Source of the DNA: an uncultured Parvularculaceae bacterium
Lineage (GTDB): Bacteria; Pseudomonadota; Alphaproteobacteria; Caulobacterales; Parvularculaceae
Direction of reading: 5' to 3'
NCBI GenBank assembly: GCA_947259375.1
Contig: CAMYLZ010000025.1
Coordinates: 434,001 to 498,000, forward strand
DNA: 64,000 nt
Shown: piece after piece, positions 25,244-32,499 of the stretch
How the letters are laid out: every line of letters starts with the position of its first letter
Position numbering within the stretch: the first letter of the stretch is position 1
Translations under genes and position numbers: made by a program
The notes under the pieces: model-generated
What the model was told of the DNA's origin: nothing
The model's database searches: none
The model's input: the letters and a program-made list of their open reading frames with translations, nothing else

Positions 25244-25987
25244 TCAGAAAAACAATAACTTAACCGCCATTGCCGCTAAGGCGACATAGAATACCTTCTT
25301 GATCAGCCCTTCCCCCCGTTTTACCGCCATATGCGCCCCGAGCCAGCCGCCGACGGCATATCCAGCGGCAAGCGCCAAGCCCAGCGCCCATTCGATTTCA
25401 ACCTTGGAAGCAAAGACTGCGAGCGCCACGAAGGAAAACACCAGCGCGACGAAAACCTTGTGCATATTGGTTCGAACAAGGTCGAGCCCCATGACACGGT
25501 TCAAAATAGGCATCATGATTAGTCCGACCCCAATTTGAATGAAGCCGCCCCAAAAGCCCGCGCCAATAAAAAGAATATGACCGATGAGGAGGTTCTTAAC
25601 CTTGCCTCCTGCAACGACCGGTTTTTGACCGGCCCCGGTCATTGTCACAACAATTACGGCGAGCATGATAAGCGCGAGCGTTCGCTCGAACCACACCCCC
25701 TCAAGCTGCACGCCGAGCGAGGCGCCGAAATATGCGCCGATCGATGCGCATGCCGCCAGCGAAGCGCTCAAACGGAAGTCCGAAAGACCGTTTCGAAAAA
25801 AGCCGCTCACCGCGGCAATATTTTGCGCGATGATGCCAATGCGGTTGGTTCCGTTAGCGACCGGGCCGGGCAAACCGACGAACACCATTACGGGAACTGC
25901 GAGGATTGATCCGCCGCCTGCGAGCACGTTGATCCACCCGGCCGCAACACCAGCAAGCGCCAGGATGGCCGCCATCCAAAAATCCAT
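25244..25987 (-). CDS. TauE/SafE (TSUP) family membrane transporter
   Basis: The 247-residue integral membrane protein has about eight hydrophobic segments and the TSUP repeats ([20 protein letters not shown] and [16 protein letters not shown]). The family exports sulfite, sulfoacetate or other sulfur compounds, or imports organic acids; the substrate here is unknown. GGAGGCGGC precedes the ATG at 25987, which is preferred over a start 8 codons upstream. Sulfate activation genes lie 2.6 kb away, but on the other strand. Confidence 0.88.
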
Positions 25988-26218
25988 GCCGCCTCCGACA
26001 GTCCGAATCACTTTTTCGGCGCATGGTTAGGCGCGATTGCGAAGCCATGCAATTGCGCTTTGCCTGTATGGCGGGTCTCGCGCGCTTTTTGGCGAAAATG
26101 AATGGGGGTCGCCAAGCTTGCCGGAGAAGTAACCCGCTCTCTATTGCATGCATGTACATATTCGCCCAATGTCCGGCCTCAAGGGGGCAGACCACGCCAA
26201 GTTAAGGGGCATTCGTTT

Positions 26219-28480: not shown

Positions 28481-28620
28481 TGGGATTGGGATCGTTCCCA
28501 CTTTGATCACATTTTCTATTGACCGATTAAAAGATTCTTCGTGGGATTAGTGTTGAGTTTCCCCTCTGAATGGTGTTAACCCCTATCGTTGGAACACCAA
28601 AGAGGGGATTTATCCCACAA
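28481..28620 (+). promoter_or_regulatory. Candidate promoter/operator region with repeated GTGGGA motifs
   Basis: A TTGACC box (about 28519) lies 17 bp from TGGGAT, a possible promoter. GTGGGAT occurs at 28541, its complement ATCCCAC at 28612 just before the start codon, and TGGGA-TCGT-TCCCA forms an inverted repeat at 28487-28500. Between the outer motifs, CCCCTCT...GGTGTT and AACACC...AGAGGGG (28561-28607) form a nested stem. The motifs may bind the HTH-like domain of the gene that follows; this is inference. Confidence 0.45.
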
Positions 28621-29774
28621 TGTCCGAATCGCAGATTCTTGAGCTTGTCCGCCGCGCCGAGAGGCTTTCGGACCAAAGCGGCCTTTCCATTTCGACCATC
28701 TCACGCAAATTATTGAACGACGGAAAAGGACTTGCGCGCCTGAAATCTGGCGGGCAATGCACCTTGAAGACGCTGGAGACGGCCCGCACGCGCCTAACTG
28801 AACTGGAAGCTTCAAACACCGCGACGCATGATTTAACGACACGATCAACGAAAAAAGACGATGCGCTCATCTCCGCGACGGCGATGACCCATCTCGACCG
28901 GCTGGAAGCGGAAGCCATCCACATTATGCGCGAGGTTGCCGCGGAAGCGGAAAACCCCGTGATGCTCTATTCTGTCGGCAAAGACTCCGCAGTAATGCTG
29001 CACCTAGCGCTAAAGGCGTTCTATCCGTCCAAACCGCCCTTCCCATTGTTGCATGTCGACACCACCTGGAAATTCAACGAGATGATCCGGTTCCGGGATG
29101 AAACTGCGGCGCGACTTGGCCTTGATCTCATTGTCCATGTTAATCGGGAAGGGGTCGACCAGGGCGTTGGTCCGTTCAGCCACGGCAGCCAGGTTCATAC
29201 GGACATTATGAAGACCCAGGCGCTAAAACAGGCCCTCGACAAATACAAGTTTGATGCGGCATTCGGCGGCGCGCGGCGCGACGAGGAAAAATCCCGCGCC
29301 AAGGAGCGCATTTTTTCCTTCCGTTCCGCCGGCCATCGCTGGGATCCGAAAAATCAGCGCCCGGAACTTTGGAACATCTACAACACACAAATCGCAAACG
29401 GAGAGTCAATCCGCGTTTTCCCGCTCTCAAACTGGACCGAGCTCGATATCTGGCAGTATATCTACCGGGAGAACATCCCTATCGTCCCGCTCTATTTCGC
29501 AGCAAAACGCCCGGTGGTCGAACGTGACGGCACGTTGATCATGGTTGACGATGATCGCATGCCGCTCAATGGCGACGCGCCGCGCGAAGAGATGGTCCGC
29601 TTCCGGACTCTGGGCTGCTACCCGCTTACCGGCGCCATTGAGTCAAGCGCAACAACTTTGCCGGAAATCATTCAGGAAATGCTGCTCGCGCGGACGTCTG
29701 AACGGCAGGGCCGGATCATCGATCACGACCAGTCAGCCTCCATGGAAAAGAAAAAACAGGAGGGGTATTTCTAA
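28620..29774 (+). CDS. cysD: Sulfate adenylyltransferase subunit 2 with N-terminal HTH-like domain
   Basis: Residues 89-384 are a complete Cys[18 protein letters not shown], the PP-loop [29 protein letters not shown] and the C-terminal QEGYF. CysD makes adenylyl sulfate from ATP and sulfate, helped by the CysN GTPase. Residues 1-88 are extra. Residues 1-65, with [19 protein letters not shown], look like the short HTH proteins common in alphaproteobacteria. The whole reads in one frame. The ATG at 28620 has AGAGGGG about 12 nt upstream, while Met89 has no ribosome site, so the fusion start is favoured. Usual CysD length is about 300. cysNC follows directly. Confidence 0.9.
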
Positions 29775-31679
29775 ATGTCCGTATCCACCCTCACCGCTTC
29801 CGACGACGTCGTCGAATATCTCGCCGCTCATGAGAAAAAATCGATGCTGCGCTTCATTACCTGCGGCAGCGTCGATGATGGCAAGTCCACATTAATCGGA
29901 CGCCTGCTTTATGATTCAAAGCTGCTCTATGATGATCAGCTTTCGGCGCTCGAAAGCGACACCAAGAAACACGGCACGCAGGGCGATAAAATCGACTTCG
30001 CCCTATTAGTTGACGGCCTTGCCGCAGAACGCGAACAAGGCATCACCATTGATGTCGCTTATCGATTCTTCTCGACGGACAAGCGCAAGTTCATCGTGGC
30101 CGACACGCCAGGCCATGAACAGTACACGCGCAATATGGCGACGGGCGCCTCTACTGCCGATCTCGCCGTTATACTCATTGACGCGCGCAAGGGCGTACTG
30201 ACGCAAACTCGGCGACATAGCTATATCGCGTCATTGCTGGGCATTCGTCATATCGCCGTTGCGGTCAACAAGATGGACCTGGTCGGATATTCCGAAGGCA
30301 CATTTGAAAAAATTGAGACAGATTACCGCGAATTCGCGAAAGACCTCGGCTTTGAATCAATTACCTGCATCCCAATGTCCGCGCTCGACGGCGTCAATGT
30401 CACGGGAAAAAGCCGCGAAACCCCATGGTACAATGGCTGCGCGCTCCTGCAATTCCTTGAGACGGTCAAAGTGCGCGGCGGGTTATCGGAAAAACCGCTG
30501 CGCCTACCGGTACAATGGGTGAACCGTCCTGACCTCGACTTTCGTGGTTTTTCCGGCACGATCGCCAGCGGCGTTGTCCGGCCGGGCGACCACATAGTCG
30601 TCTTGCCCTCCGCAAAACGTTCGAAAGTCAAGTCAATCGTCACTATGGACGGAACGCTCGCCGAAGCGACGCCTGACATGGCCGTGACCCTGACGCTGGA
30701 AGACGAAATCGACATCTCACGAGGCGACGTGATTTGCGCAGGCAAGGCGCCGGCCGAACAGACCGACCAGTTTGCTGCACATCTTTTATGGATGGCCGAA
30801 GACGCACTCTTTCCCGGCCGCCAGTATCTCCTCAAGACCGCCAACCGAATTGTCCCAGCAACGATCACTGAACTTAAGCACAAGGTCAATGTCAATACGC
30901 TGGAGCATTTGTCTGGCAAAACCTTGGAATTAAATGAAGTTGGTTTCTGCAATTTCAATCTGGCGCAACCTATTGCATTTGATTCCTACAAGGACAATCG
31001 CCGAACTGGCTCGTTTATCCTGATCGACAAACGCACCAATGCGACGATCGGCGCCGGCATGATCGACTTTTCGCTGCGTCGCGCGAAAAACGTCCATTGG
31101 CAGGATCTCGACGTCAATAAAGCCGCCCGCGCAAGCGCCAAGCACCAGCGACCATGCGTGCTTTGGTTTACCGGGCTTTCCGGCTCCGGAAAGTCGACCG
31201 TTGCCAACCTGGTCGAAAAACGGCTGCATGATCTCGGTCGGCACACTTACACGCTTGATGGCGATAATGTCCGCCACGGCTTGAACAAAGATCTCGGCTT
31301 TTCGGATGCGGACCGGGTTGAAAACATACGCCGTGTGGGTGAAACGGGGCGATTGATGGCAGACGCTGGACTGATCGTACTCGTTTCCTTCATCTCGCCG
31401 TTCCAGAGCGAACGGCGAATGGCGCGCGAACTAATGGAGGACGGCGAGTTCATCGAAGTCTATATCTCAACACCGCTTGAAGTGTGCGAACAGCGAGACA
31501 TCAAAGGCCTGTACGCAAAAGCGCGGCGCGGCGAAATCAAAAACTTTACGGGAATTGACTCCGCTTATGAAGCGCCGGAACTTGCCGAAATCGATATCGA
31601 CACATCTGAAGTCCAAGCGGCTAACGCCGCGGATCAGATCGTCATGTATCTGAAAGACAACGGCTATCTCGAAGGTTGA
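29775..31679 (+). CDS. cysNC: Bifunctional sulfate adenylyltransferase subunit 1 / adenylylsulfate kinase
   Basis: The 634-residue fusion has a CysN GTPase (about 1-440: G1 [10 protein letters not shown]3 [18 protein letters not shown]4 NKMD) followed by a CysC APS kinase (about 450-634: P-loop GLSGSGKST, then [17 protein letters not shown]). Together with CysD it turns sulfate into adenylyl sulfate and then PAPS. The start codon follows the cysD stop with no gap, so the two are one operon. The fusion is common in proteobacteria. Confidence 0.98.
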
Positions 31680-31695: not shown

Positions 31696-32499
31696 TCAAC
31701 GCAGCAATGTTTCGCAAACGCACGACCAAACCGCGTCATTACCCGCGACCAACATCGGGCGCCCAAATGTAGCACGCGGCATATATGGCTGGCGATCGTC
31801 AAGATATTCAGCACGCCCGCCCACTTCGCGCAGCGAGACGACGCCAGCGGCATGATCCCACGGACTACAACGCGAAGATACCGCGAAATCGTACCGTCCA
31901 GTGATAAGGTTGATATAGGCGTATGCGGAACAACGCGCCGGCTCGGTTTTAAAGTGCCTGCGCAACACCGGCATAATGCGGTTTCGCCATTCATCCGAAA
32001 GCGCCCCCACAGCACGATAGCCAGCCAATGGCTCATGAACTGAGGTCGAGCCTTGCAACCGCTCACCCCGCCAAGTAGCGCCAGCGCCATTTTCGCCGAT
32101 GAGGAATGCTTGATCAGGTATAGCGTAAATCCAACCTTGACGGATTTGACCATTCTCGACCAGCGCGACAATCGAACCGAACTCACGCACGCCCTGAACG
32201 AAATTGCGGGTTCCGTCCAATGGATCGACAATCCAAAACGGGCCCGATCCATCGAGCTGCTCGAGGGTCGATGGATCCTGGGCGGCAGCTTCTTCGCCGA
32301 TAAACCCGGCGCCCGGATAGAGCCCGGCAAGCGCCTTCTTTAGGCGCGCTTCCGCCGCATGATCCGCCGCGGTCACAAAATCATTGGGTCCAGACTTCGT
32401 GTCGATATCTCCTGCGCTAAGCGCACCAAAACGCGGAGCGATTTCTTCTTCAGCGACTTCCTGAATTACCGCAGCGACTTTTACCGGATCTATGATCAT
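31696..32499 (-). CDS. hisN: Inositol-monophosphatase-family phosphatase, probably histidinol-phosphatase
   Basis: The 267-residue protein has the three metal-binding motifs of the family: FIGEEAA, DPLDGTRNFV and SPWDHAAGV. In alphaproteobacteria lacking the HisB phosphatase, this family supplies histidinol-phosphatase (HisN). The segment RCSAYAYINLITGRYDF supports that, but 3'-phosphoadenosine 5'-phosphate or inositol phosphate activity is possible, and the sulfate-activating cysNC gene is immediately convergent. It overlaps hflX by 4 bp. Confidence 0.8.
   Translation of the reverse strand: MIIDPVKVAAVIQEVAEEEIAPRFGALSAGDIDTKSGPNDFVTAADHAAEARLKKALAGLYPGAGFIGEEAAAQDPSTLEQLDGSGPFWIVDPLDGTRNFVQGVREFGSIVALVENGQIRQGWIYAIPDQAFLIGENGAGATWRGERLQGSTSVHEPLAGYRAVGALSDEWRNRIMPVLRRHFKTEPARCSAYAYINLITGRYDFAVSSRCSPWDHAAGVVSLREVGGRAEYLDDRQPYMPRATFGRPMLVAGNDAVWSCVCETLLR

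What the first reader, a model, noticed from the sequence alone, without database searches (positions are those of the whole stretch)
28620..29774. CysD with an N-terminal DNA-binding-like (HTH) domain
The sulfate adenylyltransferase small subunit carries 88 extra residues in frame. Residues 1-65 ([19 protein letters not shown] and the following Gly-containing turn) resemble the short HTH proteins widespread in alphaproteobacteria. Met89, where a normal CysD would begin, has no ribosome site. This would be a metabolic enzyme fused to a possible DNA-binding module, a layout that could let CysD sense sulfate activation and control its own operon. I know of no described CysD of this kind, but I could not search for one.
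Basis: partly seen in the sequence, partly recalled or inferred. Interest (0 to 1): 0.75.

Follow-up and report, generated by a model that had tools for sequence, protein, structure and literature searches.

The report
CysD enzyme fused to DNA-binding domain
In some alphaproteobacteria the enzyme that activates sulfate carries a small DNA-binding-like domain, and matching DNA palindromes stand in front of the enzyme's own gene, so the enzyme very probably controls its own production.

Summary
The ORF at 28620-29774 encodes a complete CysD (from about Met89) with an in-frame N-terminal domain. AlphaFold models residues 1-65 with confidence as four helices (pLDDT 92.6); the nearest PDB folds are repressor-like HTH domains, at weak E-values. 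The fusion occurs in 75 of 398 genomes searched in the order and in further orders of the class. The HTH domain is under purifying selection (dN/dS 0.2); the linker hardly is (0.7).

The new result is the operator. GTGGGA-N4-TCCCAC, with at most 2 mismatches, lies upstream of 76 of 81 fused cysD genes (33 of 36 held out) and of 0 of 94 unfused ones. In 39 whole genomes 18 of 20 exact KTGGGANNNNTCCCAM sites lie upstream of fused cysD; the window's genome has one, and it does. Where a gene has several sites, 51 of 59 outer distances fall near whole DNA turns (7 to 12), which points to cooperative or looped binding.

Best explanation: CysD is a self-regulating "trigger enzyme", probably an autorepressor of cysDN. 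Its signal is unknown. The same HTH family is fused to NAD synthase, AMP nucleosidase, fumarase and an unknown enzyme. Nine searches of the held library gave no description.

The parts
28620..29774 (+). cysD fused gene (384 aa, stop included)
28620..28814 (+). N-terminal HTH domain, residues 1-65 (helices 3-20, 24-32, 37-42, 49-64)
   Evidence: AlphaFold pLDDT 92.6; alignment A1; selection
28815..28883 (+). variable linker, residues 66-88
   Evidence: 18% mean pairwise identity and dN/dS 0.70 for residues 63-87; pLDDT below 50 at 71-84
28884..29771 (+). CysD catalytic core, Met89 to Phe384
   Evidence: TIGR02039 519.6 bits from residue 92; 1zun_A E 1.6e-148, residues 88-384
28486..28501 (.). 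distal operator O1 TTGGGATCGTTCCCAC (1 mismatch to GTGGGA-N4-TCCCAC); the one exact KTGGGANNNNTCCCAM in the 3.2 Mb genome
28540..28546 (+). single half-site CGTGGGA between the two palindromes
   Evidence: read by eye from the sequence
28603..28618 (.). proximal operator O3 AGGGGATTTATCCCAC (2 mismatches), ending one base before the ATG; starts 117 bp after O1, about 11 turns
29775..31679 (+). cysN-cysC fusion (sulfate adenylyltransferase subunit 1 + APS kinase), directly after cysD, presumably the same operon
   Evidence: NF004035 1059.2 bits

Best explanation
The protein is a bifunctional CysD: an ATP-sulfurylase subunit whose N-terminal HTH binds GTGGGA-N4-TCCCAC palindromes in the promoter and start region of its own cysD-cysNC operon. 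Two HTH domains, brought together by a CysD oligomer, would occupy one palindrome: the half-site centres are 10 bp apart, one DNA turn. Oligomers on the distal and proximal sites would act together on the same DNA face, probably by looping, and block transcription from the region in between. High levels of CysD, or of CysD not engaged in catalysis with CysN, would thus shut down the operon. Shown: the fusion, its conservation, the predicted fold, the palindromes, their link to the fusion, the near-confinement of their exact form to this promoter, and their helical phasing. Inferred: that this HTH is what binds them, that the effect is repression, that looping occurs. Unknown: the effector (APS, ATP, sulfate, or CysN occupancy).
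For: Operator with at most 2 mismatches within 200 bp upstream: 37 of 39 fused loci (the motif was spotted in these), 33 of 36 held-out fused loci, 19 of 36 exact (dinucleotide shuffles mean 0.26 and 0.00), 5 of 5 in other orders, and L285; recount. Unfused cysD: 0 of 78 and 0 of 16 from the same order. Only the 4-bp spacer is enriched. In 39 whole genomes, 36 of them with the fusion: 20 exact KTGGGANNNNTCCCAM sites, 18 of them (in 17 genomes) upstream of fused cysD, the other 2 inside ORFs; reversed control pattern 14 sites. Outer-site distances cluster near 7-12 helical turns in 51 of 59 loci; R 0.53, best period 10.5 bp, permutation p 5e-5, the floor of that test. Three unfused relatives, one of the same genus (L115, L117, L119), lack both domain and palindrome. 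HTH dN/dS 0.2. Confident fold with repressor-like neighbours. Other genes with this HTH have more 4-bp-spaced inverted repeats upstream than shuffles (10 of 37 exact 6-mers, shuffles 2.1, sd 1.3).
Against: No binding or expression data. Foldseek E-values are weak (best 0.52) and no Pfam or NCBIfam HTH model matches residues 1-88. Five of 81 fused loci lack the palindrome at 2 mismatches (L220, L022, L106, L230, L234); the last four have two direct TCCCACG half-sites instead. With 1 mismatch allowed the specificity genome-wide is lost: 85 sites in 39 genomes against 134 for the reversed control (my sums), and at 2 mismatches 27 against 53 in the window's genome. The proximal window site has 2 mismatches, and two such sites in 64 kb are no more than chance (mean 1.4). 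No promoter-like match in the window region; in relatives such matches (21 of 74) do not fall at one place. Eight of 59 distances fall outside the clusters (52, 56, 58, 58, 67, 67, 112, 144), and 18 of 80 loci have one site only. Loci are related by descent, so p-values overstate certainty.
Confidence: 0.8

Rival explanations
1. The HTH-CysD binds its own promoter but acts as an activator, or as both by site occupancy, with the distal site as activating site.
For: In the 59 loci with several sites the outermost lies 89-161 bp before the start codon, a usual place for activators (recalled).
Against: The proximal site starts 15-18 bp before the start codon in 32 of 75 loci with a site, and loci such as L118, L235, L236, L237 and L239 have only a site at -16, a position expected to block.
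Confidence: 0.12
2. Another transcription factor binds the palindromes; the HTH on CysD has another role such as oligomerisation or tethering to DNA.
For: Binding by the HTH is not shown directly.
Against: Palindromes and fusion go together (76 of 81 against 0 of 94), with loss of both in L115, L117 and L119. At E 0.001 the window's genome has one match to the HTH profile, CysD itself (15 and 16 candidates scored). Some other genes with this HTH also have such palindromes upstream (L261, L269, L286 exact; L241 AAGGGATTTGTCCCTT).
Confidence: 0.06
3. The palindromes work as RNA hairpins at the start codon (translational control), with the HTH or another factor binding RNA.
For: A 6-bp stem with a 4-base loop could fold in RNA, and the proximal copy sits near the start codon.
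Against: Helical phasing at 10.5 bp between copies, distal copies 89 bp or more upstream, and direct single half-sites in the Parvularcula-type loci fit duplex DNA. No RNA folding was computed.
Confidence: 0.04
4. Translation starts at Met89, and the HTH region is untranslated or made only in part.
For: Met stands directly before the core in 53 of 78 fused proteins in which the core start was found, so internal starts cannot be excluded.
Against: Low dN/dS over residues 6-62, no Met directly before the core in 25 of 78, open frames (L227 holds a run of N), start codon at an aligned place in most.
Confidence: 0.03

Closest known systems
Trigger enzymes, above all PutA of E. coli (passages of PMC8249747 seen)
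   Same: Metabolic enzyme with an added DNA-binding domain; a single target, its own promoter region.
   Different: Another enzyme (CysD, sulfate activation), another HTH family, another operator. CysD is not among the five E. coli trigger enzymes named there (BirA, NadR, PepA, PutA, PyrH).
BirA, biotin ligase and repressor (named as trigger enzyme in PMC8249747; details recalled)
   Same: N-terminal HTH on an enzyme that makes an adenylate; control of a biosynthetic operon (recalled).
   Different: Unrelated catalytic domain and operon; nothing here shows that APS is a co-repressor.
CysD (TIGR02039, PDB 1zun_A)
   Same: Complete catalytic subunit, 498.4 bits to 1zun_A over residues 88-384.
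   Different: Extra HTH domain and linker; operators upstream.
Repressor-like HTH proteins (DdrO, C.AhdI, HipB, C.Esp1396I, SinR)
   Same: Best fold neighbours, TM about 0.5-0.6.
   Different: No significant structure E-value and no sequence match; fused to an enzyme.
PHROG 7669 and unfused short HTH proteins of Alphaproteobacteria
   Same: Sequence relatives, part of them with upstream inverted repeats.
   Different: Not fused; function unknown.

Membership tests
CysD, sulfate adenylyltransferase small subunit | Match to TIGR02039/PRK05253 above the cut-off | tested here: met
   519.6 bits against 396.6; 506.3 against 195
CysD, sulfate adenylyltransferase small subunit | cysN next to it | tested here: met
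   cysN-cysC starts at 29775, directly after the stop
Trigger enzyme | Intact enzyme domain | tested here: met
   Residues 88-384 align to 1zun_A 24-325 over the whole length; activity not testable here
Trigger enzyme | DNA-binding domain on the enzyme | tested here: inconclusive
   Predicted HTH-like fold, pLDDT 92.6, repressor-like neighbours at weak E; binding not measured
Trigger enzyme | Conserved operator at the regulated gene | tested here: met
   76 of 81 fused against 0 of 94 unfused; 18 of 20 exact genome-wide sites
Trigger enzyme | Changes transcription in response to metabolic state | not testable with these tools
   needs reporter and metabolite experiments
Pfam HTH families (HTH_3/XRE and others) | Match of residues 1-88 to a Pfam HTH model | tested here: not met
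   only Cgl0159-like, E 0.061, below its cut-off
Lambda-repressor/XRE-like fold | Structural similarity | tested here: inconclusive

The most novel reading that the evidence does not exclude
A small alphaproteobacterial HTH cassette has been fused repeatedly to the N-termini of unrelated metabolic enzymes (CysD in many lineages; NAD synthase L241, AMP nucleosidase L266, fumarase L267, and an unknown enzyme L248-L253, L261-L265, L286-L296), each with its operator, so that each enzyme becomes the single-target, looping regulator of its own gene. This would be a modular route by which enzymes acquire feedback control.
Probability: 0.45. Interest if true: 0.85.

Novelty: new variant of a known kind. 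Interest (0 to 1): 0.78.

Why it matters
Few enzymes are known to double as regulators of their own genes (five are named for E. coli in PMC8249747), and how such proteins arise is open. Here enzyme, DNA-binding domain and operator can be followed together through about 80 genomes, with relatives that lack both, lineages with direct half-sites in place of palindromes, and helical phasing. That makes a concrete, cheap bench test possible. It would also give these bacteria a dedicated control of sulfate activation, and it suggests that one small HTH has been reused on several other enzymes.

Tried and rejected
Rejected: chance extension or wrong start. A wide sulfur regulon: exact sites occur almost only at cysD; the two exceptions lie inside ORFs that read like a desaturase and a hydrolase (names from reading the translations, not tested). 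The other 1-mismatch site of the window's genome (G000:C29:79265, L121) was seen only as an ORF list; no gene was assigned. At 1 mismatch many other sites appear in the 39 genomes, not above the reversed control, and were not looked into.

Led nowhere: viral contigs with A1, 5 pattern matches and no relative. Phage records no match, plasmids one partial match in Thioclava. Promoter scan of the window region, nothing. PDB sequence search of the HTH, one useless match, and of the unknown fused enzyme L261, none. Matches of the HTH profile over about positions 9-38 only, in frames of about 342-412 aa, look like LacI-family regulators; that label is recalled, not tested, and they were not used.

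Of 80 unfused loci 78 were used; L065 and L089 have too little upstream DNA. L021, L227 and seven unfused rows dropped out of the tree. For dN/dS 311 of 741 pairs were used (core dS under 1.6), fewer for the short regions (294, 287, 191). Start codons of relatives were chosen by script.

The tree of CysD cores (151 rows, 78 fused, quick method) needs at least 3 changes between fused and unfused; one gain with losses or transfers was not told apart from several gains.

Full report
What is there. The frame 28620-29774 (+) is open for 384 aa. From residue 92 it matches CysD (TIGR02039, 519.6 bits), and residues 88-384 align to the solved CysD 1zun_A (E 1.6e-148). The stop codon is directly followed by the ATG of a cysN-cysC fusion (29775-31679). 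Residues 1-88 match no NCBIfam model and only one Pfam model below its cut-off (Cgl0159-like, E 0.061). Residues 1-63 find no useful PDB sequence and match PHROG 7669, unknown function, E 2.3e-6. Named relatives of the same family are Parvularculaceae (G128 and Parvularcula maris share a contig of 499,732 bases), so the window is alphaproteobacterial.

The extension is real and conserved. Of 60 related genomes 58 have a match to the whole protein at E 0.001. In the genus of the window 27 of 28 carry the extended form; G014 does not. With a profile of the HTH (A1) 75 of 398 genomes of the order have a match whose locus was read as a fused CysD, and further fused CysD appear in other orders of the class (L256-L260; L285). 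In the first 39 fused genes mean pairwise identity is 0.64 for the HTH, 0.18 for the linker and 0.82 for the core; median dN/dS is 0.205 for residues 6-62, 0.119 for 20-52, 0.704 for the linker and 0.102 for the core. So the HTH is translated and kept by selection, joined by a loose linker.

Fold. AlphaFold on residues 1-65 with four sequences gives pLDDT 92.6 and helices 3-20, 24-32, 37-42, 49-64. The full-length model (mean pLDDT 74.8) shows the same helices and a linker at 71-84 with pLDDT below 50. Foldseek against PDB gives 212 matches with E up to 10 and none at 0.001. The best are DdrO, C.AhdI, HipB, C.Esp1396I and SinR, with 434 Cro and repressor further down, TM about 0.5-0.6. This agrees in kind but is not a significant match. 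The residues invariant in 21 sequences are T26, S28, R29, K30, N33, D34, G35, K36, R40, G44, G45, T48, T51 and L59; most lie in helices 2-3 and the turns next to them.

Operators. Reading the upstream DNA of the fused genes showed a palindrome GTGGGA-N4-TCCCAC, often twice. Within 200 bp and at up to 2 mismatches it is found in 37 of 39 fused loci (66 sites; shuffles mean 0.17) and in 0 of 78 unfused cysD loci. As the motif came from those sequences, 36 further fused loci were fetched: 33 of 36 have it, 19 of 36 exactly; shuffles mean 0.26 and 0.00. Loci from other orders: 5 of 5 and L285. A closer control, 16 unfused cysD of the same order, gives 0 of 16. In all 76 of 81 fused and 0 of 94 unfused. 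Other spacer lengths are not enriched. The five misses are L220, with 3 mismatches at best, and L022, L106, L230 and L234 (Parvularcula type), which have two direct TCCCACG half-sites at -72/-73 and -40.

Genome-wide specificity. In 39 genomes (36 with the fusion) the exact pattern KTGGGANNNNTCCCAM occurs at 20 places. Eighteen, in 17 genomes, are upstream of fused cysD; the two others (G012, G018) lie inside ORFs; the reversed control pattern occurs 14 times. The strict form GTGGGANNNNTCCCAC occurs at 6 of these places, all 6 upstream of fused cysD. In the window's genome of 3.2 Mb the one exact site is 28486-28501. Against this, with 1 mismatch the 39 genomes hold 85 sites and the reversed control 134 (my sums), and with 2 mismatches the window's genome holds 27 against 53: weaker matches are background unless they stand upstream of cysD. 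In the 64 kb window alone two such sites are no more than chance. The claim therefore rests on relatives and on position.

Helical phasing. Of 80 fused loci 59 have two or more sites at up to 3 mismatches. The distance between outermost sites lies at 72-75, 83-85, 91-96, 103-106, 115-119 or 124-128 bp in 51 of 59; the other eight are 52, 56, 58, 58, 67, 67, 112 and 144. A period scan from 7 to 15 bp peaks at 10.5 bp (R 0.53, phase -0.6 bp). The effect stays with 53 loci after removal of similar upstream DNA (R 0.51) and at 2 mismatches (48 pairs, R 0.50). Shuffling distal against proximal positions gives mean R 0.172, p 5e-5, the floor of 20,000 trials. Distal and proximal positions are also each somewhat periodic relative to the start codon (R 0.33 and 0.45), and the loci are related by descent, so p is a guide only. 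In the window the distance is 117 bp, 11.1 turns. Same-face spacing fits cooperative or looped binding by an oligomer.

Mechanism. The last site starts 15-18 bp before the start codon in 32 of 75 loci with a site. In four loci (L118, L235, L237, L239) a TTGAC-like -35 box stands 18 bp before an AT-rich hexamer inside the operator, which would put the -10 box in the operator and make the transcript leaderless; this is inference. No promoter-like site was found in the window region, and promoter-like matches in relatives (21 of 74) are scattered. Blocking is the simplest reading. Which state of CysD binds DNA is unknown. By analogy with PutA, which represses in the absence of proline (passages of PMC8249747), free or idle CysD is my guess.

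Evolution. On a tree of CysD cores (151 rows, 78 fused) fused and unfused differ by at least three changes. Fused sequences form one group of 30, one of 44 and the four Parvularcula-type ones; the unfused L115, L117 and L119 are sisters of the group of 30. Those three lack the palindrome even at 3 mismatches.

Wider family. All 29 genomes with a match in a 398-genome sample of the phylum are of this class. The same HTH family is fused to NAD synthase (L241, NF002730 1040.4 bits), AMP nucleosidase (L266, 610 bits) and class II fumarase (L267, 772.6 bits), each seen in one genome, and to an unknown enzyme in many genomes (L248-L253, L261-L265, L286-L296), with exact GTGGGA-N4-TCCCAC upstream of L261 and L286 but not of most others. 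Among 37 non-CysD genes with the HTH, 10 have an exact 6-mer inverted repeat with a 4-bp spacer within 150 bp against 2.1 (sd 1.3) in shuffles; spacers 2, 6, 8 and 10 are also raised, less so, perhaps through nested or second repeats.

Literature. Nine searches of the held library (listings only, and passages of PMC5343134 and PMC8249747) gave no description of a CysD with a DNA-binding domain. Most subscription papers are not in that library.

Verdict. A conserved HTH-CysD fusion with its own operators: by comparative evidence a new trigger enzyme, with binding and effect still to be shown.

Noticed in passing
L241:1987-4299: Same HTH family fused to NAD synthase; inverted repeat AAGGGATTTGTCCCTT starting 49 bp before the start.
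   Followed up: partly
L266:1299-2972 and L267:1471-3111: HTH of this family fused to AMP nucleosidase and to class II fumarase, one genome each.
   Followed up: partly
L248-L253, L261-L265, L286-L296: HTH fused to an enzyme of about 450-490 aa (motifs FRF.(D/E)NRQKYL and in most TCSEK, FD.G.GDGT). L248 and L252 match no Pfam or NCBIfam model, L261 no NCBIfam model and no PDB sequence. Exact GTGGGA-N4-TCCCAC upstream of L261 and L286. A SAM methyltransferase is a guess from the motif.
   Followed up: partly
L269:1495-2031: 179-aa protein with this HTH and no NCBIfam match, preceded by exact GTGGGAACTTTCCCAC and, by eye, two weaker copies.
   Followed up: no
window 31696-32499 (-) and 25244-26011 (-): Neighbours read like a CysQ-type phosphatase (convergent with cysNC) and a TauE/SafE-type permease (labels from reading the translations, not tested); perhaps sulfur related.
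   Followed up: no
L022, L106, L230, L234 upstream: Parvularcula-type loci have two direct TCCCACG half-sites 32-33 bp apart (about 3 turns) instead of a palindrome.
   Followed up: partly
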